From a virus: 41,833 nucleotides of DNA. The stretch is taken from positions 1 through 41,833 of IMG/VR virus record IMGVR_UViG_3300020436_000021; one strand, given 5' to 3'. Within the stretch, counting starts at the first letter, position 1; each line of letters opens with the position of its first letter. Positions 5,216-41,833 of this stretch are shown piece after piece. The notes under the pieces are model-generated. The model worked only from the letters and a program-made list of their open reading frames with translations, had not been told where the DNA came from and did not search any database. The position numbers and the translations under genes are program-made.

Positions 5216-5584
5216 ATGTATACAGGAAATAAAGAAACAGAAGAGAAGGTAGCCTCTAAATTACCAGAACCACAAGGATACAAAATCCTAATTGGTGTAC
5301 CAGAAGTCAGCGATAAAACTGAAGGTGGCGTGTTTATGCCAGACGGCTTGAAGGCCGCAGAAGAAACCGCTTCGATTATCGGTTTTGCTATGAAGCTAGG
5401 CCCAGACGCCTATGCAGACAAAGACAAGTTTCCACATGGCCCGTACTGTAAAGAAGGTGACTTTGTTATCTTTCGTTCTTATTCGGGTACTAGATTTAAA
5501 ATTCATGGGAAAGAGTTTAGACTTATCAATGACGACACTGTAGAAGCAGTGGTTGATGATCCAAGGGGGTATACAAGGATATGA
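5216..5584 (+). CDS. groES: Phage GroES-like co-chaperonin (Cpn10)
   Basis: Cap of the GroEL folding chamber; phage versions can replace or modify host GroES so that large or difficult virion proteins fold. The protein shows the Cpn10 pattern: entry strand PQGYKILIGVPEVSDKTEGG with the conserved Gly-Gly at the base of the mobile loop, loop region PDGLKAAEETAS, then VIGFAMKLGPDA-type centre (here IIGFAMKLGPDAY) and the second barrel strand YCKEGDFVIFRSYSGTRFKI. 122 residues, against about 97 in bacteria; the extra length lies at both ends and around the central region. The position between portal and scaffold/coat genes suggests coat assembly as the purpose. Its stop overlaps the scaffold start (ATGA). 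Confidence 0.85.
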   Translation: MYTGNKETEEKVASKLPEPQGYKILIGVPEVSDKTEGGVFMPDGLKAAEETASIIGFAMKLGPDAYADKDKFPHGPYCKEGDFVIFRSYSGTRFKIHGKEFRLINDDTVEAVVDDPRGYTRI

Positions 5585-12341: not shown

Positions 12342-12596
12342 ATGGCTATGAAAAAGAAAGGTTACAAAAAAGGCGGCGCTGTTAAAAAGATGGGCGGCGG
12401 CAGGATGAAAAAGCCCGTTGCTATGAAAAAAGGTAGCAAAATAAAGAAGAAGACAATGTCAAGGGGCGGCGCTGTCAAAAAGATGGGCGGCGGTAGAATG
12501 AAGAAGAAAACCATGGCTAGAGGTGGGGCCGTAAAAAGAAGAGTCGGCGGCAAAATGAAAAAGACCATGGCTAAAGGCGGTAAAACACGTAGATAA
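12342..12596 (+). CDS. Lys/Gly-rich repeat protein (84 aa)
   Basis: Composed almost only of Lys, Gly, Arg, Met, Ala and Thr, with a three-fold repeat GGAVKKMGGGRMKK (the third copy degenerated to GGAVKRRVGGKMKK). There is no acidic residue at all. Strong ribosome-binding site AAGGAG. Likely an intrinsically disordered, histone-like DNA-binding peptide that packs with genome or ejects with it; also conceivable as an RNA- or scaffold-binding protein. TAATG overlap with the next gene. Confidence 0.75.
   Translation: MAMKKKGYKKGGAVKKMGGGRMKKPVAMKKGSKIKKKTMSRGGAVKKMGGGRMKKKTMARGGAVKRRVGGKMKKTMAKGGKTRR
12372..12563 (+). repeat. Three coding tandem repeats of about 42 bases
   Basis: Units begin at 12372, 12465 and 12522, encoding GGAVKKMGGGRMKK and variants. 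The first two units are nearly identical at base level (differing at a few third positions), indicating recent duplication or selection; the third is diverged. Confidence 0.8.
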
Positions 12597-13270
12597 TGCC
12601 CTACTTACAGAGTAATATACCGCATTTTAAATGTTGGGTTCGTCGTGAATATACGCATAACCACCAAGCCTATCATGGAGAGTTTCTTCATGCGATGGCA
12701 ATAGCGGTAACAACAATGCCAAACAGATGCTTGAGTTTTCAAGTCATCTTTACAGGCTGCGAAGCAGATGAGGAAGGCGACGAGAATGTACATGGCGGTG
12801 CAATGTGGGCTAGGATGCCTATAACTGCGTTAGTTGCAGACGAGCCATTTGAGGAATGGCCCGAACCTATGGCGGTGCATGACGCACAGCCTTGGGACTG
12901 TTCCTCGCATACACATGCTGTGTACGTTCTTGACAGAGCAACTCCTTGTCCTTGGTTAGCCAAGATAGATGGTAATATGTTCCCTGCAAAGTATATGTTT
13001 ACCGTTGATTACGCAGAAAGCGAGATAGCTGACGATCCTGCACAACACAAACAAAGTCATGTAATGCAGTTGCTAGATGCAGGCGAGTGGACTGGTAACG
13101 TGGTAGCACTCCCTAATAACCGTGTGAGAGTAACACATCCCGCTTGGTTTGAGACTGGTAAAGGCGCACCAGATTTTAGACCTTCACAACATATACACTA
13201 TTCAAAAAGTGATTTAGACTATACATTGGACGTGAATAGAGTATTTGATAACCTTTACAATGAGGATTGA
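12596..13270 (+). CDS. Histidine-rich protein of unknown function (224 aa)
   Basis: Starts MPYLQSNIPHFKCWVRREYT and contains 14 histidines, several clustered: THNHQAYHGEFLHAM (residues 20-34), SSHTHAVYVLDRATPCPW and SQHIHYSKSDLDYTLDVNRV near the end, plus WDC and PC cysteines. The density and clustering suggest a metal site or structural metal. It reads as a mixed alpha/beta folded protein with many aromatic residues, not as a fibre. Start overlaps the preceding stop (TAATG). I do not recognise the family and cannot assign a reaction. Position among head-tail genes suggests a virion or assembly role. Confidence 0.75.
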   Translation: MPYLQSNIPHFKCWVRREYTHNHQAYHGEFLHAMAIAVTTMPNRCLSFQVIFTGCEADEEGDENVHGGAMWARMPITALVADEPFEEWPEPMAVHDAQPWDCSSHTHAVYVLDRATPCPWLAKIDGNMFPAKYMFTVDYAESEIADDPAQHKQSHVMQLLDAGEWTGNVVALPNNRVRVTHPAWFETGKGAPDFRPSQHIHYSKSDLDYTLDVNRVFDNLYNED

Positions 13271-26061: not shown

Positions 26062-26330
26062 TGACAGATTTAAAAATACCTGTTGCTCTTGTCTTTGCTA
26101 TGGCTGTGCAGTTAGTTGCGTTGGTCTGGTATATCTCTGGGATGGTTCATGACATTGAGCATCTTGAGGGAACAGTATCTGCACAACAAGATATTATTGA
26201 TCTACTTAGCGCAGACGTAAATGATCTATGGCACTTCTGCACTTTTACTGAAAACAAGTGGGCAGAGAGCTATACCTCTGACATGGTCTATGAACGTGTC
26301 TGTGGCACGAAGGAGTTTGTAGATGAGTGA
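26061..26330 (+). CDS. Membrane-anchored coiled-coil protein, possible spanin or lysis accessory (89 aa)
   Basis: One N-terminal TM helix (residues about 6-27, PVALVFAMAVQLVALVWYIS), then a coiled coil (HDIEHLEGTVSAQQDIIDLL) and a C-terminal part with two cysteines (WHFCTFTE, ERVCGT). Its topology equals an inner-membrane spanin, but no lipoprotein partner (outer-membrane spanin) is seen nearby. Overlaps the preceding stop (TAATG) and the endolysin start (8-nt overlap). Confidence 0.55.
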   Translation: MTDLKIPVALVFAMAVQLVALVWYISGMVHDIEHLEGTVSAQQDIIDLLSADVNDLWHFCTFTENKWAESYTSDMVYERVCGTKEFVDE

Positions 26331-26934
26331 AGCATTAAAAACATTACAAGAAAAGATTGGGGCTACGCCTGATGGTGCATTCGGCCCTAATACTGCAAAA
26401 AAGATCTGTCATCACTACGCCTTAAATCCAGAGCGTGGCGCACACTTTCTTGGGCAGCTTGTGCATGAGAGTGGTACGTTTCGTTATACTCAAGAAAATC
26501 TTAACTATAGCAAAGAATCTATATTAGCAGTGTTTGGTAAATATTTTAAGTCGGAAAGCGATGCTGCAAGCTGCGCTCGCAACCCACAAGCTCTTGCTGA
26601 CCGTGTGTACGGTGATAGGATGGGCAATGACGGTCAAGGATATCTGTGGCGAGGCAGAGGATTTCTGCAATGCACGGGCAAAAATAACTATTCTCAGTTT
26701 GCAGCAGACATGGATTTACCAGAAGTCATAAAAGATCCCGATCTTGTGGCTACAAAATACCCTATGGAATCGGCTATTTGGTTTTTTCACAGAAACAAAT
26801 TGTGGGATATATGTGATGAAGGTGTTACAGACGAGGTTATTAAAAAAATAACTAAAAGAGTAAACGGTGGATACAATGGGTTAAAGCACCGTAAAGAAGA
26901 GACAAATAAGATTTATAGCTGGCTAGACGATTGA
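26323..26934 (+). CDS. Endolysin, glycoside hydrolase family 19
   Basis: Cleaves the peptidoglycan sugar backbone at the end of infection. 203 residues. An N-terminal short segment LQEKIGATPDGAFGPNTAKK resembles a peptidoglycan-binding repeat. The catalytic domain has the GH19 pattern: HFLGQLVHESGTFRYTQENL with Glu49 as the likely general acid, VYGDRMGNDGQGYLWRGRGF then LQCTGKNNYS, and late-domain W-rich ESAIWFFHRNKLWDI. No signal peptide, so export depends on the holin encoded immediately upstream. Confidence 0.88.
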   Translation: MSEALKTLQEKIGATPDGAFGPNTAKKICHHYALNPERGAHFLGQLVHESGTFRYTQENLNYSKESILAVFGKYFKSESDAASCARNPQALADRVYGDRMGNDGQGYLWRGRGFLQCTGKNNYSQFAADMDLPEVIKDPDLVATKYPMESAIWFFHRNKLWDICDEGVTDEVIKKITKRVNGGYNGLKHRKEETNKIYSWLDD

Positions 26935-28473: not shown

Positions 28474-30243
28474 ATGGGCAAAGGCAGAAGTGCACCAGCA
28501 GACCAAACAGTACGCCAAACAAACCTACCTGAGTACGCTGATCCGTACTTTCGTCGGATGTTGCAGGGTGCCGAAGAATCCCTTATGCCCTTTTACCCAG
28601 ATGACCCAGATGTTTATGGGGATCTAGCAGGGCAATCTACTTATATGCCGTATCAAGGTGAGCGTATTGCGCCATCTGATATGTACGGCGATATTATGTC
28701 CTCTCGCGCTATGACACGAGGTATTGCTGAGTCTGGCATTGCAGGTATGCCTCAAGCTCAAGGTGCAGCACAGGCTGCTATGGATATTCAGTCAGAGGCA
28801 CTTGGTGGGTTACGTGGTCTAGCTGATTATCAAACTGGTGATTTTAGCGCGGCTGATACGAGAGATTTTGCAGACGAGTTCCAGACAGTCGCGCCAAGTG
28901 ATGCATTTGGCTTATTTCAAGAGTTTGATCCAACACGATATACAGGATTTGAGCAAGCTCAGTTTGAAGAAGCAGAGTTTACTCCATTTGCTGAGTTTGA
29001 CGAATATCAGTTCCGTGCGCCAACAGAATTTTCACAGTTTGATTTTAGACCAGATTACTCATTCCAACAGTTTGAATATGAAGAGCCAGAAGATTTTACA
29101 GCGGCAGCAGCAGAGAGATATATGTCTCCGTATATGCAAGCTGTTGTTGAATCTCAACAAGAAGCGGCGCAACGCGAGTTTGAAAGGCAAGGGGCTGGAC
29201 GAGCGGCGCAAGCAATTCAATCTGGTGCATTCGGTGGTTCTCGTCAAGCAGTACAAGAAGCTCTTGCGGAAGAAGCACTCGGTCGTCAAGTGGCAGACAT
29301 CGAACGCACAGGTATGCAGACAGCATTTGAACAAGCGGCACGGCAATTTGAGAGTGATCGTGCAGCAAGAATGACGCAAGAGGAGCGTCAGGCTCAAGAA
29401 GCATCAAGGTTCCAAGCTGCGACAGCGGCAGAGCAAGCGCGTGTGGATCAGGCTCGATTTACAGAGTTATCTTCTCGTGAACAGGCGCAAGCAGCAGAAT
29501 TTGCAAGGGCAGGAGATCAAGAAGCAGCAGAACGCGCTCGTGTTCAAGCCTCTAAGTATCAAGACTTGGCGCGTATCCAAGCGGGCAAAGCTGCTGAAAT
29601 GGGTCGTGTGCAAGCAGGTATTGCAGGTGAGATGGGTCGTGTGCAAGCAGCAGAGGCAGCAGAAAATGCTCGTATGGATCAGATCATGCAGCAAGAAGCT
29701 GCTAGGGTACAAGCCGCACAAGCAGCCGAAATAGCAAGACAAGACGCAATGCTTGCAGGTGAGGAAGGTCGTGTTCAAGCAGGACGTGTAGGTGAACTTG
29801 GTAGAGCGCAGGGTCTTACCGCATCTGAACTTGCTCGTGTGCAAGCCGCAGAAGAAGCATCTCGTCAATTTGGTGCAGGTCAAGGACTTGCTGCGTATCA
29901 AGCAATTGGTAGCGGAGCGAGCAACCTAGCAGGTTTAGGTGCAGGTCTTGCATCTCTTGGTGAGCGTCAACGCGCAGCAGACATACAGGGCGCACAACTA
30001 CTTGAATCAATTGGTAGGGATGTTCGCGCAGAGGATCAAGGTAGGCTTGATCTTGCTTACGAAGACTTTATTAGGCAACGTGATTATCCGATCTCACAAT
30101 ACGAGCGTATGGCAGGTATTTTACGTGGTGTACCAGTCACGCCTGATGTGGAACAAACAAGGTTTGCTAATTATAACCCAGTACAACAGGCACTTGGTGC
30201 AGGTATATCGGCACTTGGACTATATAAAGGTCTAACAGGATGA
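28474..30243 (+). CDS. Probable ejection protein with long alanine-rich coiled coil (589 aa)
   Basis: N-terminal part contains a Phe/Glu-rich segment (residues about 140-205) with repeats such as FEQAQFEEAEFTPFAEFDE. Next is a recognisable phage motif: RYMSPYMQAVVESQQEAAQR then GAGRAAQAIQSGAFGGSRQA. Residues about 250-470 form an Ala/Gln/Arg/Glu helix with a quasi-repeat ARVQAxxAxE, making an extended coiled coil. The C-terminus is Gly/Leu-rich (ASNLAGLGAGLASLGERQRA) followed by a typical end. Similar proteins in short-tailed phages are packaged inside the head and ejected. Overlaps the next gene by 4 nt (ATGA). Confidence 0.65.
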   Translation: MGKGRSAPADQTVRQTNLPEYADPYFRRMLQGAEESLMPFYPDDPDVYGDLAGQSTYMPYQGERIAPSDMYGDIMSSRAMTRGIAESGIAGMPQAQGAAQAAMDIQSEALGGLRGLADYQTGDFSAADTRDFADEFQTVAPSDAFGLFQEFDPTRYTGFEQAQFEEAEFTPFAEFDEYQFRAPTEFSQFDFRPDYSFQQFEYEEPEDFTAAAAERYMSPYMQAVVESQQEAAQREFERQGAGRAAQAIQSGAFGGSRQAVQEALAEEALGRQVADIERTGMQTAFEQAARQFESDRAARMTQEERQAQEASRFQAATAAEQARVDQARFTELSSREQAQAAEFARAGDQEAAERARVQASKYQDLARIQAGKAAEMGRVQAGIAGEMGRVQAAEAAENARMDQIMQQEAARVQAAQAAEIARQDAMLAGEEGRVQAGRVGELGRAQGLTASELARVQAAEEASRQFGAGQGLAAYQAIGSGASNLAGLGAGLASLGERQRAADIQGAQLLESIGRDVRAEDQGRLDLAYEDFIRQRDYPISQYERMAGILRGVPVTPDVEQTRFANYNPVQQALGAGISALGLYKGLTG

Positions 30244-32519
30244 ACATACTAGAGTTACAAGATAACCTTAAAGATTTACCAGACAGCGCGTTGATGCGCG
30301 AAATGCAGATGCCTTCAGGTAACGCACCACAGTTTCTTGTCTTGAGTGAGCTAAAACGACGTAAGCGCATGCGGGATGACTTTCAACGTCAACAAAACGC
30401 CGATATGCCTACCGTAGCAGAAGAAGTTGTCACAGCCGCAGGTATGCCACAAGAAGGTATTATGGGTGCAGCACGTGCAATGGCACCAAATACAAACATG
30501 GCTCAGAACACGGGTATGGATACAGCCACGCCAATTCCTGCTACACGTGCACCTCAACCACAAATGATGGCTGACGGTGGTATTGTTAAGATGCAGACTG
30601 GTGGTATAACAGAGTACCCCTCAATAAATCCTCTTATAGGCAATGTGGATTTAAGCCAAATTGCAGCCATGCTACAAAGCGGTGCTGATAAAGAGGCACT
30701 CGTTGCTAACTACGGTGCAGACGCTGTTCGTGAAGCAGAGTCTATGCTTTTGCCTTTTATGAAAAAGTCTATAGGACAAATACCTCTTGGTAGTGGTAGT
30801 TTAACTAGACGTGAAATAAGAAGAATGGAAGATCAAGGTATCTTCGGTAATAAGTCTTATCGTGACATAGGCGGCGAAGGTATCGGAAGCGTATCCGCAG
30901 ACGTAGAAGATTTTGCAGCGGCTCCGTTAGCAGATGAACGTAGAGACGATGACCCAGAATTACCAGAAGACCCGTTAAGACCAAGAACAGGCTTTGGATC
31001 AAACCCTGCATACACGTATGAAACGTTCTTAGAAGAAAATCAGATAAACGACACTCCTCAAGCGCAAGAGATGTTTATTAGATATAAAGACTACATGAAT
31101 GAAAGAGGGCCAACATCAGATCCAAAAGTATATTCTCCTTTCTTGGATGATAGTCCAGAATTAAAATCACCAGTCGATTCAGGGAAGCTTCCATCAATAT
31201 CTTCTATGGACGAAGAGTTTGCAGCAAATACACTCTACCCTGAAGGTATAGGCACAGCTACACAAGAGTTTCTTCAAAAACGAAATGCAGGTTTTGGGGA
31301 CGGATCAGATGAGTTTGAACCCATACCGTATTTGTCTTCTATTTCTAAAGATGCAGATCAAAGAGCATCAGCGGAAGCTGAAACAGACAAACCTACCTTT
31401 ATGGGAGATGTGCTACCGTTCCTTGGCGATGCGGCTGTAGCAGCAGGTAAAAGTCTTTATGAGAATACCTTAAAGCCAGAGCCGTTGCTAGAGGTAGGCG
31501 CAGTGCCAAATAAAAGAGAAGTTTTAGAAGGTCAAATCGCTGATATAAACCAACAAATTCTTGATGCGGAACAGGCAAATGATGAAATACTTGCAAATGC
31601 ATTAACAAAACGTAAAAATGTATTGATGCGCCGTATAGATACTATGGAGTTTTCAGAAGACGCAGGAGAAGCTCTTCGTAATGTACCGGGCGCGTTGCAA
31701 GATGTAGGTTCTTCTATATATCAAACTTTTAATGAGCAAGTGTTAGCAGGGGTTGATCCACGGTTAGCAGCCGCAAATATAAAAGCCTCACAAGATGCTG
31801 TAGCTGCTAGAGACTTAGAAAATGAAGCTGGTATTGAGTCAGAAGCAGAACGAGAGGCACGTATAGAAGCGTTACGTGGTGATGCTACTGAAGTCGTCCC
31901 AGGAATTAGCACTGATGTTTCTGGTTTTTTTCCTAACTTAGAAATGGAAAACCCAAATATTGGTGATCCTACCACTCCTGCACCAAAGGTAACTACAGAC
32001 GATAACATAGATAACATTAAGCCAGTGACAGACCCTGATCCTGAAGGATTCGGCTCAACAGATTCTCGTATCGCTAAGATGTTATCAGAGCGTCAAAAGC
32101 AAGCCGAATCAGACAAGTGGATGGCACTTGCATACGCAGGTTTTAAGTTAATGGAACCAACTTCGACTATTGGCGAAGGTTTTGGTAAAGCAGGTCAGGC
32201 AGGTCTTGCCTATCTAACTAAGTCTAAGAAAGGTTTACGAGACTTTGAGACTGATATGCTCAAGCTACAAACAACATTGGATGCCGCGAGACTTAGATCA
32301 CAACGTGCAGATAAAACTTCTGCAACGGCATACGCTGCTTTAGAAAGGTCTTATAGCGAGGCTCTTGAACTCGCAACTCAAAATCCAAGTGCGCCAAATT
32401 TAGCAAGATTAAAAGAACTTGAAGATTTAGTCAGGGAGGCTAGAGCTGTGCAATTTGGTGCTGTGACCGCAGATAATACAAACAGCGGGGTAATTAAGAC
32501 ACCTTCCGCACAAACTTGA
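30240..32519 (+). CDS. Probable internal virion protein (759 aa)
   Basis: N-terminal helix ELQDNLKDLPDSALMREMQM followed by PSGNAPQFLVLSELKRRKRM, a pattern recurring at the start of such proteins in marine phages. The motif MADGGIVKMQTGG (nt about 30565-30605) matches YADGGIMALAKGG in the protein at 26977. Long stretches are acidic and poorly ordered (residues 200-480). The C-terminal region has helical segments (WMALAYAGFKLMEPTSTIGE, GLAYLTKSKKGLRDFETDML, then a long helix). No enzymatic motif seen. Likely ejected with or before DNA. Confidence 0.6.
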   Translation: MNILELQDNLKDLPDSALMREMQMPSGNAPQFLVLSELKRRKRMRDDFQRQQNADMPTVAEEVVTAAGMPQEGIMGAARAMAPNTNMAQNTGMDTATPIPATRAPQPQMMADGGIVKMQTGGITEYPSINPLIGNVDLSQIAAMLQSGADKEALVANYGADAVREAESMLLPFMKKSIGQIPLGSGSLTRREIRRMEDQGIFGNKSYRDIGGEGIGSVSADVEDFAAAPLADERRDDDPELPEDPLRPRTGFGSNPAYTYETFLEENQINDTPQAQEMFIRYKDYMNERGPTSDPKVYSPFLDDSPELKSPVDSGKLPSISSMDEEFAANTLYPEGIGTATQEFLQKRNAGFGDGSDEFEPIPYLSSISKDADQRASAEAETDKPTFMGDVLPFLGDAAVAAGKSLYENTLKPEPLLEVGAVPNKREVLEGQIADINQQILDAEQANDEILANALTKRKNVLMRRIDTMEFSEDAGEALRNVPGALQDVGSSIYQTFNEQVLAGVDPRLAAANIKASQDAVAARDLENEAGIESEAEREARIEALRGDATEVVPGISTDVSGFFPNLEMENPNIGDPTTPAPKVTTDDNIDNIKPVTDPDPEGFGSTDSRIAKMLSERQKQAESDKWMALAYAGFKLMEPTSTIGEGFGKAGQAGLAYLTKSKKGLRDFETDMLKLQTTLDAARLRSQRADKTSATAYAALERSYSEALELATQNPSAPNLARLKELEDLVREARAVQFGAVTADNTNSGVIKTPSAQT

Positions 32520-32531
32520 GGGTAGGATACG

Positions 32532-35500
32532 ATGGGTATATATCAATACGTCGATCCTCAAACAGGACGTAGCTATCAGTTTGAACATGCTGGAGATGCG
32601 CCGACCAACGAAGATTTTGCGTTCATACGCAGTACATTAGAACGAGATCGAGCAGCATACGCGCAGCAGTTTGAAGCATTTACTGGCAAAGAATACGAAG
32701 AACCTGATGACGGCACAGCCATAGGTCGTGGGTTTGAGCGTGGCAAGAAGCAGATTAAACAAGCTTTTGGCGAGACACTCGGCACTATCGGTGAGAAGTC
32801 TGGACTTGAGTTCCTTGCAGAATATGGACAGGGTGTAGAGGAAAACGCCCGACAGGAACTAGGCGAGCTAATGCTTGAACAGCCAGAACGCATGCAGTCT
32901 ACAGATGTAGAAGGTATTATGTCAGGGTTGACCTATGCAGGAGAAATTGCTGGTGAACAAATACCACAGCTTGGTCTTGGTCTTGGCGCAGCTATAGCCG
33001 CTCCTATCTTAGCCCCTGCCGCAGCAACCGCAACCGCGCTTGGCTCTTTTGCTGTAGGTGCAGGTGCCGCAGCAGTTGCAACCGCGCCGATTTTGTTTGG
33101 TAACAATATCCAACGTCAAGAAGATGAAGTAGCCGCAGGTAAAAAGGCGTCAGTCGATGTTAGCGATGCTCTTGTAGCTACGTTTGGTCAAGCAACTCTT
33201 GAGGGTATTGCTGACAAAGTGTTGCTAGGTGGAGCGTTCCGTTCTTTAGGAAAATCTATTTTTACCCGCGCAGCTACTCGTGCAGGTAGTGGTGCTACAA
33301 CTGAAAGTTTGACCGAAGTTGGTCAACAGATGATGGAACGAGCACAGGCAGGACTACCGATTGACAGCGAAGATGCCATTGCAGAGTACCGCGAAGCAGC
33401 TATTGCAGGTGGCCTCGTCGGTGGCGGCACACGAGCTACACTTGGAGCATTCGGTGAGCGTGACCCAGATGCGCCTCCAATCACCGAAACCACCGAAACA
33501 GGGGGTACTGCTACCGGGGCGGTGGGGCAGGTTGTACAAGACACACAAACAACTCCTCAGTTACAAGAAGGCCAAACACAGGGCGAGTTGTTTGCGGTTG
33601 AGCCGACTGAAGACGCTATTTCTGTTGCTAGGACGGCGATAGCTACAGATGCACGGTTAACAGATCCAAATGTAGACGAAGATTTTATAAGAGAAGAACT
33701 AGATCAAGACTATTCCCCCGCCGTTATAGAGCAGATTATAGCAGAGCGTAGGTTAGCAGCTAACGCGGCAATAGCTACAGAAGCTAAAAATGCAGCAGAC
33801 CCGACATCACCGAAAGGTAAAGCAGAACAAACAGATGAACAACGTGCAGCAGAATCGGCTGTGGTGGCAGGAGAAACTGCTACACCAAGTGCGGCAGTGG
33901 TTAAAGAAGAAGCTAACCTTGTTAACGAGCAAACCCGAAAACAAAAAAAGGCTGATGCAAAAGCTGTAGCTAAGACTCAAGACTACTTACCTGGACTTGA
34001 GCCACAAGAAAGCGGCACCGCTGCAATCGAGAGCGAGCAGACTGGTCAGAAGATTGAAGTAGGTAAAAAAGATGTAGAAACTACAGAAGCAACTGAGGAA
34101 GCATTTACACCTGATTATGTAAAGAACGTGCTCGGCGTTACACGACCCGCAGCGCCACTTTTAAAAGCCGCAACAGAAGGTAATCTAAGTGGCAAATCTC
34201 TTGATGACCCTGCTGTGGTAAAACGGCTTGCTAACTATGTAGGTAATCGTGGAGCTGAATCAAATGCTGTGATAGCTTCGATGGAAGGACGAGGTTATGA
34301 ATATGTCGGAAACCAATTCGTTAGACCTGAGTCAGAGGGAGTTAGAACAGGCGTTCAGGGTGGTGGATCTGGCGTGGCAGGAACGAGACGGGATGGAAGT
34401 AGAGATCAGGATACCACCGAACTTGCACCATCTGACGAAGAAAGAGTGGGAACAAGTGTGCCAACTACTGAGCCACCTGCTGTGGCAACAAGAGAACAGC
34501 CTGATACATTAGAAGTATCATCAGAACAAACAGCGCAAGTACAGCAGCTTGCCGAACAAGCAACGGCTACGCCAGTAGATTTAACAGACACACAGGTACA
34601 ATATATCCGTGAGAACCCGTTGTCTGCCGAAGCACAAGCAGAAGCTGAAAAGAGAAGAATTATACGCGAAACTCCCGGTGGGTATGCAGGGGAGGTACGA
34701 AATGCACTAGCAGAGACTGGCACAACAATACCTCCAGAAGTTCTCGTAGAGCAAGATGAACTAGCTGCGAGACAAGCTAGATTAGCAGCAGGGCAACCAG
34801 AAGGACTAGCAGTTCCAACTGGCCCAATGACAGGCGCAATCGGTGGCGCTGAAACAGCAGCAGATGCACAATTAGGGCCAATACCTGAAGGTATTCCGCC
34901 TGTACCTAGAACAGAACCAGTGCAAGAAACTGCACCTGAAGTAGATGTGCAAGCGCAGCAAGAACTAAATGTTGCAGCGCAGCAAGCTCTAAATGATCGT
35001 TTTGCTTTACCACCCGCTAATAATAAAGAAGGTCAAGCTACCGCCGTTGCACGTCAGTACTACGAAGAACAGCAACTAGAGAGTCAAGAAGCTGATCCTA
35101 CCAACGCAGGTGATAAACAAGCTATTTTAAATTTATTTTCTATCCAGAAAAATAAACTAACAGGAGAAGAAAAAGCTGCTAAAATATTTTTTGATAGGTT
35201 TCGTCGTCCTATAGATGCCCTAGAAGAAATAGGCGGTATGGAAGTCGTTGGTCCTACTCAATATGTTAAAAAGAACTATAATATAGATGAGTTTGACTTC
35301 TACAGAGGAATGACAAAAAGCAACGCTCTTGCCGCACGTAAGTGGGCGCAGCTTAACTTGTCAGAAGAAGCTAGTAGTCGTATAGCCCTCGCCGCACAAC
35401 GAGCACGTAAAAATACATCTAAGTTTAACCCTTCTGATAAAGAAATTGAAGCAAGTCGCGCAGCTAAGAAAGAAGCAAAGAACATTCGTGATGCTCAAGA

Positions 35501-38500
35501 TAAAGCATATAAACGGCAGGTAGATGAGATTGTAAAACAAAACAAGCTTGTAGCAAGCATACCTGCTCAAATCGAAGCAATGCCAGAGCAGAGACAAATC
35601 ATTCCTGATCTGGAAGGCGCGTTTAAAAACTATTTACGTGACCCACAAGGACTAAATTTTACACAAGCTGAAATAGATACGATGACCCCTGCACAGATAC
35701 AAGAGTATCGTGATGGTTATAATTACTCCTATCAGCTAGGTCTGTACCTAGATGCAGACGCAGTGCATGGGCTAGATATTGCACTACTACCTAGTGTACG
35801 CAACGCACTTATAAACGGCAACTTACGTGGAGCGTTAGACGCCATAGCTACAATCAATCAAATAGACAGTATTCGTGAGATTGCAGCTAAACTAGGGGCT
35901 GTTGTAGGCGATACGCAAGTGCGAGTGGTTGATAATCTATCACAGATAACAGGGCGCAACAGTGCAGGGATGTTTGAGCCTGAAACAAATACGATCTTTA
36001 TCGATGCTACCAACGGGATGAACGTGCATACTATACTGCATGAGATGACCCACGCAGCTACCTCGGCATCGATAGCTAACCCCTCACTACCTGAAACTAA
36101 ACAGCTACAAGCAATATTTAACAATGTCCAAGAGCAGTTTGGCGAGGCGTATGGCACGGCAAACCTAGATGAGTTCGTTGCCGAAGCGTTTAGCAATCCA
36201 GAGTTTCAAAGCGCACTAGCCCTTACAAAGGTAGATGGGGGTAGGCTGACAGGTTGGGAGAAGTTCACAGGTGCAATAAAACGTATTGTCCGTAAGATAT
36301 TGGGTTTGTCTCCTTCTCCCACCGCCTTATCTGAGGTTAATCGCATTATAGACGGTATGCTATCTCCATCTCCTGCCACACGTGCAGCAGCACCTATGCT
36401 AATATTAGCAGGCTCAAAGACAGGAGCGAAGAACTTAGCCAGAGGCGCGGCAAGCGTTGTGCCAGAAAGTATTCGTAATTCAGTTGCAGATAGCGCAGAC
36501 GTTATGTTTAACGAAGGAGCGTCACGAACGCTGCGGAGCTGGTACTTAAACACTTTACCTGTAAACATCTTGACAGATAAAGCTAAGAAATTCATCCCGT
36601 TTGCTAGAGAACTCAACACTATAATAAATACAATGAGTGGGTCGTTGAGAAAAAAGACAGAGATGTTGGACTCTATTCTTTACAATCTCCACAAATGGCA
36701 ACGTAAAAACAAAGATAAAGCTAAAATACTAAACAACCTTATACCGCGTAGTACTTATCTACAGGTTGATCCGTCACGCACTGATGTCGAATACACGAAG
36801 AAAATACGTGCCGACAAAGAGCGTTCTGCCGAATACGATCAACTAAGAGCAGAGTACAACAAGCTAGGTTCTGAAGGACAGGCGTTCTATCGTCAGATGC
36901 GTAATTACTTTCAGGATACATACAACGAGATAATGGAAGCGTTAGACATACGTCTAAAGGCTACAATCCCTAATCTAGAACAGCGCAAGTCGGCGATGGC
37001 TAAGATACAGGAGATGATGCAAAAGCAAAGCGGCACTATTACACCGTACTTTCCTTTAATGCGTAAAGGGGCATACAGACTAACGTACAACGCAAAAGAT
37101 CCGCTTACAGGAAAGCCAGAAAGATTTGTAGAGTATTACCCTACAGAGCGTAAAGCGACACAAGCATTGCAGGCAGCGGAGAACGCAGGGGCTAAAGAAA
37201 CGTCTATAACTTCAGCTTCAAAACGATTTGAGTACGAGAACAATCCTTCGCCTGGATTTATAGGTGATCTTTTCGACACGTTAAATAAAGAAAATGTATC
37301 TCCTGAAGCAATGAGTGAAGTAATAGATCTTGTATTAGATGCCATGCCAGAACGTTCTTTTTTGCAAGGCTTCCGTAAACGTGGAAATGTACGCGGGTTT
37401 ATCGGAGATACTACACCGACTGGTATAGGTGGCACGGAGTTCGACGCCTACACGATGATGAAAGAAAAAGGTCGTGACCTAAACAGGCAGCTTGTGCAGA
37501 TGAAAGCAAGTGCAGAGCTTGTTGGGTTTAAAAACAAATTGACGAGTGGCAAGTACGATCAAGACCCACGCACATCTATGATGGCAGGTAAACTTGCACA
37601 GATAGCTACGTTTGCACAAAGCCCAGATATAAATCGCGCTTCTCAAATAGTTAATAGTCTTGGGTTTGGCTATACTATGGGGCTTAACTTTTCTTCCGCA
37701 GCTATAACATTCTTCGATGTAGCTATGAGTGCCATGCCTGTGCTTGCAGGAAAACACGGTGTCGGTGCTACTTCCAGAACATTCGGCACAGCTTCTAAAT
37801 TATTTATGGGTGCACCTAAAACAAGAACCGTTATGGTAACTGGCCCTGACGGACAACCTGTTCAACAAGAAGTAAACATGGGAGCGTTTGGTAAATCGAT
37901 TGCTAACTACGAGCTAAACCAATTACCTTCTATTTTGCAGGACAATCGTGGTGACATACTGATCGAGATGGGTACAGACCAAGGGCAGTTTAACCAGTCC
38001 ATGACGCAAGAGAATCTGGAGATGGGTAGAGGTGCACCGCTAGAAACTTTTAACAAGTTTTCTAGTTTTATGTTTCATCACTCAGAAAGATTTAACCGTG
38101 AGACCACACTCACATCTGCATACCTACTAGAAGTACAAAAGCTTAGGCGAGAGAAAGGTGATCTTACTGAAGCCGACTACCGTGATGCGGCTCAAGAAGC
38201 CATAGACGCTACAGAATTTACTCTCGGTGCAACTGCTTCCGCAGGTCGTCCAATCGTAGCACAAAGCGGTATTGGTAACGTGCTGTTTCTCTTCAAAAGA
38301 TTTGCAATCAGTAAGTACTATATGATGGCAAAACTAGCCAAAGAAGCGGCTATGGGAGATCCCGTTGCACGTGCAGCAGGACGTAACTTTCTTATCTCTA
38401 CAGGCATATTTGCAGGGCTTGGTGGTATGCCGTTAATGGGTGCAATAGGTGTACTCTACAACATGTTTGCAGATGATGATGAAGATGACTTCGAGGCAGC

Positions 38501-39203
38501 TACACGTAAGTTCGTAGGAGAAGGTATTTACGGTGGGCTTGCTAATGAGATGTTGGGTATAGATCTAGCTAATCGAATCTCAATGAATAGTCTGCTTTAT
38601 CGTGCACCGATCATAGACAAAGATCAGAGTAATCTATGGACTCTAATAGAGCAACTTGGAGGCCCAGTAATCGGTGTAGGGTTAAGTATTGAGCGTGGCA
38701 TAGGGGACGTTTACGAAGGCGAGTGGTACAGAGGCGTAGAATCCATGGTTCCTGCGGCTGTCCGTAATGGCATGAAGTCCTTTAGATTTGCAACTGAGGG
38801 GGCAACAACTAGACGTGGAGATGCCATTACTGAGGATATCAACCCATATAATGTGGCAATGCAGCTTGCAGGATTTGCACCACAATCATACATACAACGA
38901 CTTGAGATAAATAAAAACGAAAGACGTAAGCAAAAGTCGTTAGACAGCAAACGCACAAAGCTTCTACGAAGACGTAACATGGCGATGCGTGAGGGTGACT
39001 ATGAAGAAGTGCAAAAAGTAGATGAGTTAATTGCTGAGTTTAACGCATCTATACCAGAAGCGTTTATACGAGATGAGTTAATAACAGCAGAAACAAAAAG
39101 CAGATCGTATAAATCGTTCTTACAAACTTCTAAAAACATGCGTGGTGGGGTGGTCTTTACCGACGGTATGTTAGAAAGCTTAGAAGAATACGACTTAGAT
39201 TAA
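32532..39203 (+). CDS. Giant ejection/internal protein with HExxH metallopeptidase domain (2223 aa)
   Basis: Largest gene in the window. N-terminal 130 residues are helical; residues 146-190 form a hydrophobic Ala/Gly stretch (AAIAAPILAPAAATATALGS) that may cross membranes. About residues 310-860 are Glu/Thr/Pro/Gln-rich and probably disordered. Residues 1130-1240 hold a zinc metallopeptidase signature: HEMTH at 1170-1174, and LDEFVAEAFSNPEF at about 1213-1226 supplying a third acidic ligand (probably Glu1218). Next come helical domains with PYFPLMRKGAYRLTYN (about 1505) and, near 1950-1980, a second hydrophobic segment (LISTGIFAGLGGMPLMGAIG). Such multi-domain proteins are known as large polyvalent phage proteins and are thought to enter the host with the DNA. 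The C-terminus is charged and helical. Confidence 0.75.
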   Translation: MGIYQYVDPQTGRSYQFEHAGDAPTNEDFAFIRSTLERDRAAYAQQFEAFTGKEYEEPDDGTAIGRGFERGKKQIKQAFGETLGTIGEKSGLEFLAEYGQGVEENARQELGELMLEQPERMQSTDVEGIMSGLTYAGEIAGEQIPQLGLGLGAAIAAPILAPAAATATALGSFAVGAGAAAVATAPILFGNNIQRQEDEVAAGKKASVDVSDALVATFGQATLEGIADKVLLGGAFRSLGKSIFTRAATRAGSGATTESLTEVGQQMMERAQAGLPIDSEDAIAEYREAAIAGGLVGGGTRATLGAFGERDPDAPPITETTETGGTATGAVGQVVQDTQTTPQLQEGQTQGELFAVEPTEDAISVARTAIATDARLTDPNVDEDFIREELDQDYSPAVIEQIIAERRLAANAAIATEAKNAADPTSPKGKAEQTDEQRAAESAVVAGETATPSAAVVKEEANLVNEQTRKQKKADAKAVAKTQDYLPGLEPQESGTAAIESEQTGQKIEVGKKDVETTEATEEAFTPDYVKNVLGVTRPAAPLLKAATEGNLSGKSLDDPAVVKRLANYVGNRGAESNAVIASMEGRGYEYVGNQFVRPESEGVRTGVQGGGSGVAGTRRDGSRDQDTTELAPSDEERVGTSVPTTEPPAVATREQPDTLEVSSEQTAQVQQLAEQATATPVDLTDTQVQYIRENPLSAEAQAEAEKRRIIRETPGGYAGEVRNALAETGTTIPPEVLVEQDELAARQARLAAGQPEGLAVPTGPMTGAIGGAETAADAQLGPIPEGIPPVPRTEPVQETAPEVDVQAQQELNVAAQQALNDRFALPPANNKEGQATAVARQYYEEQQLESQEADPTNAGDKQAILNLFSIQKNKLTGEEKAAKIFFDRFRRPIDALEEIGGMEVVGPTQYVKKNYNIDEFDFYRGMTKSNALAARKWAQLNLSEEASSRIALAAQRARKNTSKFNPSDKEIEASRAAKKEAKNIRDAQDKAYKRQVDEIVKQNKLVASIPAQIEAMPEQRQIIPDLEGAFKNYLRDPQGLNFTQAEIDTMTPAQIQEYRDGYNYSYQLGLYLDADAVHGLDIALLPSVRNALINGNLRGALDAIATINQIDSIREIAAKLGAVVGDTQVRVVDNLSQITGRNSAGMFEPETNTIFIDATNGMNVHTILHEMTHAATSASIANPSLPETKQLQAIFNNVQEQFGEAYGTANLDEFVAEAFSNPEFQSALALTKVDGGRLTGWEKFTGAIKRIVRKILGLSPSPTALSEVNRIIDGMLSPSPATRAAAPMLILAGSKTGAKNLARGAASVVPESIRNSVADSADVMFNEGASRTLRSWYLNTLPVNILTDKAKKFIPFARELNTIINTMSGSLRKKTEMLDSILYNLHKWQRKNKDKAKILNNLIPRSTYLQVDPSRTDVEYTKKIRADKERSAEYDQLRAEYNKLGSEGQAFYRQMRNYFQDTYNEIMEALDIRLKATIPNLEQRKSAMAKIQEMMQKQSGTITPYFPLMRKGAYRLTYNAKDPLTGKPERFVEYYPTERKATQALQAAENAGAKETSITSASKRFEYENNPSPGFIGDLFDTLNKENVSPEAMSEVIDLVLDAMPERSFLQGFRKRGNVRGFIGDTTPTGIGGTEFDAYTMMKEKGRDLNRQLVQMKASAELVGFKNKLTSGKYDQDPRTSMMAGKLAQIATFAQSPDINRASQIVNSLGFGYTMGLNFSSAAITFFDVAMSAMPVLAGKHGVGATSRTFGTASKLFMGAPKTRTVMVTGPDGQPVQQEVNMGAFGKSIANYELNQLPSILQDNRGDILIEMGTDQGQFNQSMTQENLEMGRGAPLETFNKFSSFMFHHSERFNRETTLTSAYLLEVQKLRREKGDLTEADYRDAAQEAIDATEFTLGATASAGRPIVAQSGIGNVLFLFKRFAISKYYMMAKLAKEAAMGDPVARAAGRNFLISTGIFAGLGGMPLMGAIGVLYNMFADDDEDDFEAATRKFVGEGIYGGLANEMLGIDLANRISMNSLLYRAPIIDKDQSNLWTLIEQLGGPVIGVGLSIERGIGDVYEGEWYRGVESMVPAAVRNGMKSFRFATEGATTRRGDAITEDINPYNVAMQLAGFAPQSYIQRLEINKNERRKQKSLDSKRTKLLRRRNMAMREGDYEEVQKVDELIAEFNASIPEAFIRDELITAETKSRSYKSFLQTSKNMRGGVVFTDGMLESLEEYDLD

Positions 39204-39280: not shown

Positions 39281-39493
39281 TCACATAGTTCTCCACGCAC
39301 GTAAACCAAGTTTTTTGTTTTCAACACAAATCTGCACCTCAAATTCCCATGCTTTCATTTTTGCAACACTTTTTAGTTGTTTTTTACCCTTTTCGGTATT
39401 GATGCAGGGTACAAATATAGACGACCCTACGTCCATTGCGTCCCAGTTTATTGTGATCCGAAGCCCGTCAGGGTTCAAATCATCAAGCTTCAT
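39281..39493 (-). CDS. Small conserved-type protein after the primase-helicase (70 aa)
   Basis: Translation begins MKLDDLNPDGLRITINWDAM and overlaps the primase-helicase 3' end by 11 nt in a different frame. Other in-frame starts at 39508 and 39520 are possible. Contains WDAMDVGSSIFVPC and a basic helix KGKKQLKSVAKMKAWEFE, then VENKKLGLRAWRT at the end. The fold reads as a small alpha/beta protein. No function recognised; its location suggests a replication accessory protein. Confidence 0.65.
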   Translation of the reverse strand: MKLDDLNPDGLRITINWDAMDVGSSIFVPCINTEKGKKQLKSVAKMKAWEFEVQICVENKKLGLRAWRTM

Positions 39494-41833
39494 CACTTTC
39501 TGATCCATCACTGCCCTCATCTAGCTCTTCAAATTTCATCTCCAACACCCAGTCTGGTGGCAGATTAAAGTCTGTACCCTTAGTCAAACGCTTCTTTATA
39601 CGCTTGGCGTTCAGCTTGTCTTTCAGATCGTCCACAAGACTAGCATAGTTTATCTGCTGATCTATACACCACTCTCTAAATGGCTTGATGCGTAGGAATA
39701 GCAGTTTTGTGTCAGGCTCGTACCGTGCAACCAAGAAGCCTCTTGGCGATGCCGAAACAGGTACAAGTTGATCCAGACTACTGTCGTTACTGCCTCGCAA
39801 GTCCTGTGTGCTTTCTATCTTCAGCATGTTGTTGTAGTTCTCTGACAAGTAGTTGTTGAGTGTTTGTGATACCGATGCGCCGATGTCGTTGACAAAGTTG
39901 TTTCGTATAATCAGCTCCTTAACCACCCATCTGTATACAGCACCTACATCGTACCTAACAAACCCAAGCTTATTAGCTATGATAAGTCCTGCAAGAATTA
40001 CAGCGTTGCCGTTTGACCAAAATCTATTTTCTGGTCCTAGCCCTGCTGCAACGTCTATTCTGCGTTTAACAGACTCAACGGTGCGCTTGGCTTCTTCTTT
40101 GTTGTTTATCACCCACTGTGTATACTCTGGACCAATCCAACCGTAGTTCTTTTTCAATTCTTTAAACAGATCAGATGTATCGATGTTCTGACCAACAACA
40201 TTAACTAATTTCTTTACTTGTATCTCAAACAGCCGCTGCATCTCTGCTTTCGGCATAGCTTTGTCTCGACTCAATATCTCCCATGCACTGGTATTTCCAG
40301 AACTAATAGCCAACAGTTGCCAGGGTTTGCCACGAGTTCTTTCTATATTACCGTTTGATGCGAGACGGTTCTTTTGGCGTCCGCCTGATATTTGATAAAC
40401 ATACTCAGACATCTCTCTACTTGTTACGTTAGTCATCTCATCAGACACCAAAGGTAAACTGTGCATTATCTCACCACGGTTCATCCTAGCGTTGTGGGTA
40501 TCATCTTTAGCGTTCATCAGTTCTTCTGGGTTACCCCATAAAGATAAACAAGCCATTTCCGCAGTTGTTTTACCTACACCTGAACCACCATGCAGATGCA
40601 CTGCCATGCTGTTTAGCCCTGTCAAAGCCATCAGAGGTGAGCCGAATCCGACGCCAACGATGTATTGATGTAGCTCCCATCCTTTTTTGTTGTAGAAGTT
40701 TAGCAACTCTATATTCTTCTCACGTGAGCCTTTTGGCTCAAATGAATCTATAAGCCCCGCTGTCTTGGATGACGGTGGGTTATAACTAATCCCTGCACCT
40801 GTGATAAGTTTATCTCCAAGTACAAACTCTTCCATATCATCATCGACCCAACCAAACTGTCTATGCGCTTCGTCTGCCATAGATGTTTTCTGTAATTCAT
40901 CGACCCACTTTGTTGTATATGCCATAAGTTTATCTAGACTCCTTCCCCATGCAGTTACGCCCTCTCGCGCCATGCTTTTACGAAACTCTTCTCTTGAGGT
41001 CACATGCGTAAGCGGCACACTAAATTGACGTACACCATCTTTTGGTAAGTGTAGTCGAAACACTAGTGTTTCGCCAAGCTCTTCGTCATGCAACCTACGA
41101 GTAATGTATATATCGTGATGGTATATTACCTCTTCTTCTATGTCCCCATCTTCGTTACTGCTACGCATAAACACGCCGCCTGCTGCGCCTCGAAAATACG
41201 GTGACGGGTATTCTGGTATATCAAACTCTCTATCTTGTTTTTTACCTGCAACAGGTGCAGATACCGTTGCCGAACCCTGTGCTGCTTTGATGCGTTTGCC
41301 CAACACAATCGGCGATTTAATCTCACCCCACAAAGGACACTCTGTGCATACCCCTTCGTTCAACTCGTCAAAACGTGCACATGTATACGGACCTTTTATC
41401 TCGTCTACCTTCTTACGCATCATATCTTCGCTGTAATCAGGATGCTTATCAGATATTCTTTCTGCTGCTTTGTCCCCATCTACACAAAACTTTGTAATCG
41501 ATAGTCCTGCTCGCCATAGTGGTTCGCTGACCTCTTCCTGCTTCGTAGCTATGAAACGTAGCTGCTCGCATCCACGTCCTTCGATGGTTTTCTTTATAAT
41601 CGTTTTAAAAACGTTTTCTGAGTTGTCGGCATACGCTTCGTACAATGCGTCTGTACCCAAGTCTATGTTGGTAACTGGCTTCAATACGCCAAGCTTGGCG
41701 ACAAACTCAGACAAGACAACAGGTTCTGGCAGGTCTACACCAAACAAACCAACTGCCAGAGGTGGATCGCCTTTATAGTTATGCGTATTCGGCACACGTA
41801 ATATACGTGCTACATCTGCTGTCACGGCGGGGT
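39483..41833 (-). CDS. Primase-helicase (DUF927-like ATPase), N-terminus missing
   Basis: DNA replication enzyme. The frame is open to the right edge (residues PAVTADVARILRVPNTHNYK at the edge), so the primase-polymerase domain lies outside the window and the GTG at 41825 is internal. The visible part shows the end of the primase region, a conserved PLWRAGLSITKFCVDGDKAA, a Cys group CARFDELNEGVCTECPLWG that may bind zinc, and a DUF927-type helicase core with Walker A GGSGVGKTT (about nt 40565-40591), Walker B-like LPLVSDEMTN and an arginine-containing later motif (AEMQRLFEI). A phage replication operon is implied upstream. The C-terminus is acidic (DEGSDGSESDEA). Confidence 0.85.
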   Translation of the reverse strand, partial: PAVTADVARILRVPNTHNYKGDPPLAVGLFGVDLPEPVVLSEFVAKLGVLKPVTNIDLGTDALYEAYADNSENVFKTIIKKTIEGRGCEQLRFIATKQEEVSEPLWRAGLSITKFCVDGDKAAERISDKHPDYSEDMMRKKVDEIKGPYTCARFDELNEGVCTECPLWGEIKSPIVLGKRIKAAQGSATVSAPVAGKKQDREFDIPEYPSPYFRGAAGGVFMRSSNEDGDIEEEVIYHHDIYITRRLHDEELGETLVFRLHLPKDGVRQFSVPLTHVTSREEFRKSMAREGVTAWGRSLDKLMAYTTKWVDELQKTSMADEAHRQFGWVDDDMEEFVLGDKLITGAGISYNPPSSKTAGLIDSFEPKGSREKNIELLNFYNKKGWELHQYIVGVGFGSPLMALTGLNSMAVHLHGGSGVGKTTAEMACLSLWGNPEELMNAKDDTHNARMNRGEIMHSLPLVSDEMTNVTSREMSEYVYQISGGRQKNRLASNGNIERTRGKPWQLLAISSGNTSAWEILSRDKAMPKAEMQRLFEIQVKKLVNVVGQNIDTSDLFKELKKNYGWIGPEYTQWVINNKEEAKRTVESVKRRIDVAAGLGPENRFWSNGNAVILAGLIIANKLGFVRYDVGAVYRWVVKELIIRNNFVNDIGASVSQTLNNYLSENYNNMLKIESTQDLRGSNDSSLDQLVPVSASPRGFLVARYEPDTKLLFLRIKPFREWCIDQQINYASLVDDLKDKLNAKRIKKRLTKGTDFNLPPDWVLEMKFEELDEGSDGSESDEA

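What the first reader, a model, noticed from the sequence alone, without database searches (positions are those of the whole stretch)
35922..36255. HExxH metallopeptidase domain inside the 2223-residue ejection protein
HEMTH (residues 1170-1174) plus LDEFVAEAFSNPEF about 40 residues downstream forms a gluzincin-like or related site. A protease in a protein that probably enters the cell with DNA could process other ejection proteins, cut peptidoglycan cross-links or attack a host protein. It is placed between a disordered region and a helical C-terminal half, like a deployable module.
Basis: partly seen in the sequence, partly recalled or inferred. Interest (0 to 1): 0.65.

Follow-up and report, generated by a model that had tools for sequence, protein, structure and literature searches.

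The report
Protease domain in phage ejection protein
A marine phage carries, inside a giant protein that is probably injected into bacteria with its DNA, a zinc-protease domain with an intact active site; it belongs to a recurring family of such domains in phage delivery proteins whose job is unknown and which public records often mislabel as a cell-wall enzyme.

Summary
Glu1214 of LDEFVAEAF follows 40 residues after the second His. By composition 0.003 such motifs are expected. In 21 proteins from unrelated phages the only invariant positions are His1170, Glu1171, His1174 and Glu1214. Among 27 homologues recovered through the C-terminal half, without using the motif, all keep an HExxH there. 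The predicted fold (pLDDT 85) is a minimal zincin, and the best PDB folds are the catalytic domain of anthrax lethal factor, followed by small gluzincins. The tyrosine seven residues before Glu1214 has the spacing of lethal factor's catalytic Tyr728.

The domain is not new in kind. It is the zincin of polyvalent phage proteins described in 2017 and matches N4 virion RNA polymerase domain C1 (HHalign E 1e-8). It also matches the tetrameric ejection protein of PhiM1, phiKMV-like and KP34-like phages (E 1e-12 for PhiM1-like), where the same segment is annotated 'endolysin/exotransglycosylase-like'. That label looks wrong.

Most likely it is an active peptidase that works after ejection, releasing parts of its own protein or cutting a host protein. 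Substrate and timing are inferred. A peptidoglycan role is disfavoured.

The parts
32532..39203 (+). 2223-residue polyvalent / ejection-type protein that contains the domain
   Evidence: ORF; LPD39 Pfam hit; DarB-like and other giant-protein PHROGs over the C-terminal half; 38 homologous loci found with the C-terminal half
32961..33104 (+). Hydrophobic stretch, residues 144-191, candidate membrane-spanning part of the N-terminal domain
   Evidence: Kyte-Doolittle 19-residue peaks up to 1.8; a similar peak near residue 150-180 in most close homologues
33432..35051 (+). Low-complexity, fast-evolving linker, residues 301-840
   Evidence: Low conservation, P/E/Q/S/T/G 48%, dN 0.37-0.78
35865..36227 (+). 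Zincin metallopeptidase core, residues 1112-1232
   Evidence: AF2 helix, three strands, HExxH helix, Glu helix; Foldseek PDB and BFVD; HHalign to PhiM1 and N4 domains
36039..36053 (+). HEMTH, residues 1170-1174: His ligands 1170 and 1174, catalytic Glu1171
   Evidence: invariant columns in alignment A1; an HExxH is kept in 27 of 27 homologues recovered without the motif
36150..36152 (+). Tyr1207, candidate transition-state tyrosine at -7 from Glu1214
   Evidence: 54 of 55 in the wider clade; also in PhiM1-like, Axy21, phi14:2 and Rhizobium proteins, not in N4-like ones; spacing of lethal factor Tyr728/Glu735
36171..36173 (+). Glu1214, third zinc ligand
   Evidence: Invariant in A1 and A2, not part of any search seed that used HExxH
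36516..36995 (+). LPD39 domain, residues 1329-1488, start of the helical C-terminal half
   Evidence: Pfam PF18858 E 1.7e-18
28474..30243 (+). 589-residue protein matching a DNA ejection protein family
   Evidence: phrog_4287 E 2.5e-5
30240..32519 (+). 759-residue protein between the two, no family match, likely second ejection protein by position

Best explanation
Residues about 1112-1256 form a catalytically complete zincin metallopeptidase domain of the kind found in phage polyvalent and ejection proteins: N4 vRNAP C1 and the tetrameric ejection proteins of PhiM1, phiKMV-like and KP34-like phages. Zinc is held by His1170, His1174 and Glu1214. Glu1171 activates water and Tyr1207 probably stabilises the transition state. 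The protein is packaged in the head and ejected with the DNA. Its N-terminal hydrophobic part probably sits in the inner membrane, and the linker lets the zincin and helical C-terminal half reach the cytoplasm. There the peptidase most likely acts after ejection, either cutting the polyvalent protein itself (freeing the C-terminal half from the membrane anchor) or cutting a host protein. Shown by computation: fold class, conservation of the active-site residues, kinship. Inferred: zinc binding, activity, location, timing and substrate.
For: Only H1170, E1171, H1174 and E1214 are invariant across 21 sequences from Autographiviridae, Schitoviridae, Crassvirales, Parlovirus, Rhizobium and Vibrio phages. 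HExxH is kept in 27 of 27 homologues with coverage that were found through seeds in the C-terminal half. The predicted fold has the zincin order of elements with HEMTH and Glu1214 in the right helices. The top eight PDB folds are lethal factor, followed among others by selecase and abylysin. Foldseek against viral models finds phage core proteins and vRNAPs with probability 1.0. HHalign E 1.3e-12 to PhiM1-like TEPs and 1.2e-8 to N4-like C1, with ligands aligned. Profile hits to solved ejection proteins 9sfn, 23sg and 8vb2. Tyr at -7 has lethal factor spacing. The gene two upstream matches a DNA ejection family. Strong purifying selection. For timing: N4 vRNAP is packaged unprocessed (PMC5512222), and PhiM1 gp48 is modelled in the capsid with this segment in place (PMC11440229).
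Against: No activity has been reported for any relative in the papers read. Foldseek PDB scores are weak (best E 0.011, TM about 0.33). Pfam hits are all below the curated cut-off. The N4-like relatives lack the tyrosine at -7, so some family members could be weak or inactive. Virion location is inferred from relatives, not measured for this phage, whose morphology is unknown. The whole C-terminal half folded poorly (pLDDT 64).
Confidence: 0.7

Rival explanations
1. Maturation protease: the domain cleaves its own protein or neighbouring ejection proteins during assembly, before or in the head, as proposed for phage P1 DdrB.
For: The C-terminal half matches a DarB-like PHROG. P1 DdrB is processed before packaging and has a C-terminal MPTase domain (PMC5512222).
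Against: The closest characterised relatives of the domain are not cut: N4 vRNAP is packaged whole (PMC5512222), and PhiM1 gp48 is seen in the capsid with the domain in place (PMC11440229). The N-terminal domain, zincin and C-terminal half are all kept as one reading frame in the homologues.
Confidence: 0.17
2. Effector: the domain attacks a specific host protein in the cytoplasm (defence, transcription or envelope protein), like other zincin effectors.
For: Fold and tyrosine placement resemble lethal factor, a host-protein protease. Polyvalent proteins commonly carry counter-defence domains (PMC5512222). This is one of the two branches of the best explanation.
Against: No substrate evidence. 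The same clade is conserved across phages of very different hosts, which fits a phage-internal substrate at least as well.
Confidence: 0.3
3. Peptidoglycan endopeptidase or 'endolysin' domain that opens the wall for the ejectosome, as annotated for PhiM1 and many relatives.
For: Annotation of the same segment in PhiM1 as endolysin/exotransglycosidase-like from BLASTP and DALI (PMC11440229) and in many records.
Against: No transglycosylase or lysozyme Pfam match in PhiM1, KF1 or Axy21 core proteins, while the Limnohabitans relative has a separate SLT domain (residues 16-118) plus the zincin at 609. The fold is protein-endopeptidase-like. The window has a possible separate GH19-like lysin.
Confidence: 0.06
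4. Structural relic: the zincin fold is kept for folding or for unfolding and refolding during ejection, without catalysis.
For: No activity reported for N4 C1 in the parts of PMC12633501 read. N4-like members lack the tyrosine at -7.
Against: The catalytic Glu1171, not needed for metal binding, is as invariant as the ligands in very divergent proteins.
Confidence: 0.12

Closest known systems
Zincin-like MPTase domains of phage polyvalent proteins (Iyer et al. 2017, PMC5512222)
   Same: HExxH helix, later helix with Glu, embedded in a giant protein with large-polyvalent-associated (LPD) domains; proposed to process polyproteins or act on host proteins
   Different: This sequence is below the cut-off of the Pfam models found, including MPTase-PolyVal. 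Whether it falls in one of the 12 published clades was not tested.
Domain C1 of phage N4 virion RNA polymerase (PMC12633501; PDB 9pnr, 11fw)
   Same: Homologous by HHalign (E 1.2e-8); lies before a long helical C-terminal part and after a membrane-active N-terminal domain and linkers
   Different: No RNA polymerase domain was detected in the window protein. N4-like sequences lack the tyrosine at -7 and have longer spacing (64-78) to the Glu. Homology of the helical C-terminal halves was not shown.
Tetrameric ejection proteins of PhiM1 (8vb2), phiKMV/LKD16-like (9sfn) and KP34/F19-like (23sg) phages
   Same: Homologous domain by profile search (E 1e-16 to 4e-11) in a core ejection protein; PhiM1-like ones keep Tyr at -7
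   Different: Shorter proteins (about 1240-1340 aa). The segment was called endolysin/exotransglycosidase-like in PhiM1.
Anthrax lethal factor catalytic domain (Pfam ATLF)
   Same: Best PDB fold match; third ligand Glu and a tyrosine seven residues before it, with 45 against 40 residues between second His and Glu (residue numbers in PMC3496994)
   Different: Only weak sequence similarity (E 0.05; Pfam ATLF below cut-off); none of its cell-entry parts; encoded by a phage structural cassette

Membership tests
Zincin metallopeptidase superfamily | HExxH in a helix | tested here: met
   helix 71-86 of the model contains it
Zincin metallopeptidase superfamily | Third ligand from a downstream helix | tested here: met
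   Glu1214 invariant and in helix 118-127 of the model
Zincin metallopeptidase superfamily | N-terminal helix and three-stranded sheet before the HExxH helix | tested here: met
   H18-28, E35-39, E52-55, E60-64, H71-86
Zincin metallopeptidase superfamily | Zinc bound with correct geometry; peptidase activity | not testable with these tools
   Model coordinates not supplied; needs biochemistry
Phage polyvalent-protein MPTase (PolyVal) | Embedded in a multidomain giant phage protein with LPD domains | tested here: met
   LPD39
Phage polyvalent-protein MPTase (PolyVal) | Match to curated MPTase-PolyVal models | tested here: not met
   Only one of 21 members hits PF18818, E 0.056, below cut-off; the published clades are wider than the Pfam model
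N4 vRNAP C1 / tetrameric ejection protein zincin clade | Profile-profile homology with ligands aligned | tested here: met
N4-type virion RNA polymerase | T7-like single-subunit RNAP domain in the same protein | tested here: not met
   No RNAP match in Pfam or PHROGs scan
Lethal factor family (ATLF) | Pfam model above curated cut-off | tested here: not met
   16.8 bits against 27.4
Lethal factor family (ATLF) | Glu third ligand with catalytic Tyr at -7 | tested here: met
   Tyr1207/Glu1214; numbering of reference
Thermolysin-type gluzincins | NExxSD motif in the third-ligand helix | tested here: not met
   Sequence there is LDEFVAEAF
Lytic transglycosylase / endolysin | SLT, lysozyme or other muralytic domain | tested here: not met
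   No match in the window protein nor in the PhiM1 core protein
Ejection protein | Present in virion and ejected | not testable with these tools
   Inferred from position, phrog_4287 neighbour and relatives, one detected in virions by MS (phi14:2 gp076)

The most novel reading that the evidence does not exclude
A delivered zinc protease is a general, so far overlooked part of short-tailed phage genome-delivery machines. The 'endolysin' domain of tetrameric ejection proteins in PhiM1, phiKMV-like and KP34-like phages, N4 vRNAP C1 and this protein are one lethal-factor-like zincin family that cuts a conserved target after ejection, for example releasing the cytoplasmic half of the ejectosome or disassembling it.
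Probability: 0.35. Interest if true: 0.7.

Novelty: new member of a known kind. Interest (0 to 1): 0.42.

Why it matters
It joins several separately annotated domains of ejection proteins into one zincin family with an intact active site, and suggests that the 'endolysin' label on hundreds of phage core proteins is wrong. That gives a direct test of a long-standing gap: what, if anything, these delivered domains cut during the first minutes of infection. Solved particles (PhiM1, phiKMV-like, KP34-like, N4) already exist in which zinc density and cleavage can be looked for.

Tried and rejected
A chance motif was rejected (expected 0.003; invariance of the ligands). HExxH conservation in the 55-sequence alignment A2 was not used as proof, because the search seed contained the motif; the test was repeated with seeds in the C-terminal half. 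A thermolysin-like or LAS/M23 peptidoglycan peptidase was rejected by motif and fold. Homology of the helical C-terminal half with N4 C2 was tried by profile (only a weak 14-3-3 match, taken as spurious) and by folding (low confidence, no usable match) and left open. Host identification through genome contigs failed: none for the C-terminal half, four distant MAG hits for the domain. The paper search for PDB 9sfn returned nothing. The Foldseek match of the domain to PDB did not list the ejection-protein chains among the 50 rows shown although sequence profiles find them; cause unknown. The search for published zincin annotation of crAss-like or phiKMV core proteins found none in the held library, which does not prove that none exists.

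Full report
What is there. The ORF 32532-39203 encodes 2223 residues. HEMTH lies at residues 1170-1174 (36039-36053) and Glu1214 of LDEFVAEAF 40 residues after the second His. By composition 0.003 HExxH motifs are expected in this protein. Pfam recognises only LPD39 just downstream (residues 1329-1488, E 1.7e-18); Tox-MPTase4 is a sub-threshold hit over the HExxH region (E 0.033). The C-terminal half matches PHROGs of giant proteins, one called DarB-like antirestriction.

Conservation. Close relatives from viral contigs, found with six seeds outside HEMTH, all keep HEMTH (16 of 16). Seven divergent phage proteins found by tblastn add Autographiviridae, Schitoviridae (annotated virion RNA polymerase), a crAss-like phage (virion protein by MS), Parlovirus, and Rhizobium and Vibrio phages. 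In the joint alignment of 21 sequences the only invariant columns are the two histidines, the catalytic Glu and the downstream Glu. A stricter test used the C-terminal half as query: of 27 loci that reach far enough upstream, 27 have an HExxH 122-179 residues before the match. Twenty-three have this domain; four (L129, L130, L131, L137) carry a different-looking HExxH segment in its place. Some of these loci come from the same contigs, so the tests overlap. Selection is strongly purifying on the domain and weak on the linker.

Fold. AlphaFold2 on a 55-sequence alignment gives pLDDT 84.8, with helix, three strands, the HExxH helix (71-86), a helix, then the helix with Glu1214. This is the core described for polyvalent-protein zincins in PMC5512222. 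Foldseek against PDB puts lethal factor chains in the first eight ranks (best probability 0.97, but E only 0.011 and TM about 0.33), with selecase and abylysin among the next ranks. Against viral models it finds phage internal core proteins, large polyvalent proteins and virion RNA polymerases with probability 1.0.

Kinship. A profile of the 21 sequences finds three solved ejection proteins: 9sfn_G (1e-16), 23sg_S (2.3e-11) and PhiM1 gp48 8vb2_A (3.6e-11). N4 vRNAP and lethal factor follow near E 0.05. By tblastn 9sfn corresponds to the LKD16/phiKMV-like core protein and 23sg to that of KP34/F19-like Klebsiella phages. HHalign links the domain to PhiM1-like proteins (E 1.3e-12) and to N4-like C1 (E 1.2e-8) with catalytic residues aligned. 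The N4 paper notes a conserved HExxH in C1, followed by a helical C2.

A likely wrong label. The PhiM1 paper describes residues 268-528 of gp48 as endolysin/exotransglycosidase-like, by BLASTP and DALI, and many records carry 'internal virion protein with endolysin domain' or 'peptidoglycan lytic exotransglycosylase'. The zincin lies in exactly that segment. The PhiM1 protein has no transglycosylase match in Pfam, while the Limnohabitans relative has an SLT domain at 16-118 and, separately, the zincin at 609. I infer that the label was propagated in error. The papers read do not settle this.

Catalytic tyrosine. In the window clade a Tyr (1207) stands seven residues before Glu1214, as Tyr728 does before Glu735 in lethal factor, where it is implicated in catalysis (PMC3496994). 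The same Tyr is present in PhiM1-like, Achromobacter, phi14:2 and Rhizobium proteins but not at that position in N4-like ones. This suggests that the window domain is catalytically complete, and that not all relatives need be equally active.

How it probably works. The gene follows two other large genes, one matching a DNA ejection family. The N-terminal domain has a hydrophobic stretch at about 144-191, present at a similar place in most close homologues, and a long linker separates it from the zincin. In N4 the N-terminal domain enters membranes, and flexible linkers carry the rest. By analogy the zincin and helical half would reach the cytoplasm. N4 vRNAP is packaged uncut and PhiM1 gp48 is seen with the domain in place, which favours activity after ejection. 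Self-release of the C-terminal half or cutting of a host protein are the leading options; I cannot separate them. P1 DdrB is the precedent for earlier processing.

Verdict. The kind of domain has been known since 2017, so this is a new member of a known kind. The value lies in joining the ejection-protein domains under one active-site pattern and in the testable correction of the endolysin label.

Noticed in passing
L129:5154, L130:6461, L131, L137:6461: Relatives with about 31% identical C-terminal halves carry, at the zincin position, an unrelated-looking segment with HEIAHHDERNHSESGF (HExxHxxxxxH) and no Pfam match: possibly replacement by another zincin type.
   Followed up: partly
L143:6198-9989 (PhiM1 gp48), L142:6993-10847: Core ejection proteins annotated as endolysin or exotransglycosylase appear to hold the zincin instead.
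   Followed up: partly
L024:6201-10931: Limnohabitans phage core protein has both an N-terminal SLT transglycosylase and the zincin.
   Followed up: no
L019 residues 1195 and 2557; L023 residues 2286 and 2609: Parlo and Vibrio 1.245.O giant proteins each have two HExxH sites, so possibly two zincin domains.
   Followed up: no
window 5216-5584: Phage-encoded GroES-like co-chaperonin (phrog_3188, E 8.8e-12) close to the capsid genes.
   Followed up: no
window 12596-13270: Matches phrog_3704, labelled ferredoxin (E 9e-29), amid structural genes; the label may be wrong.
   Followed up: no
window 26323-26934: Weak GH19 chitinase-like match (E 0.0013), candidate endolysin just upstream of the ejection cassette.
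   Followed up: no
window 39483-41825 (-): DUF927 primase/helicase-like protein on the opposite strand (E 4e-28).
   Followed up: no
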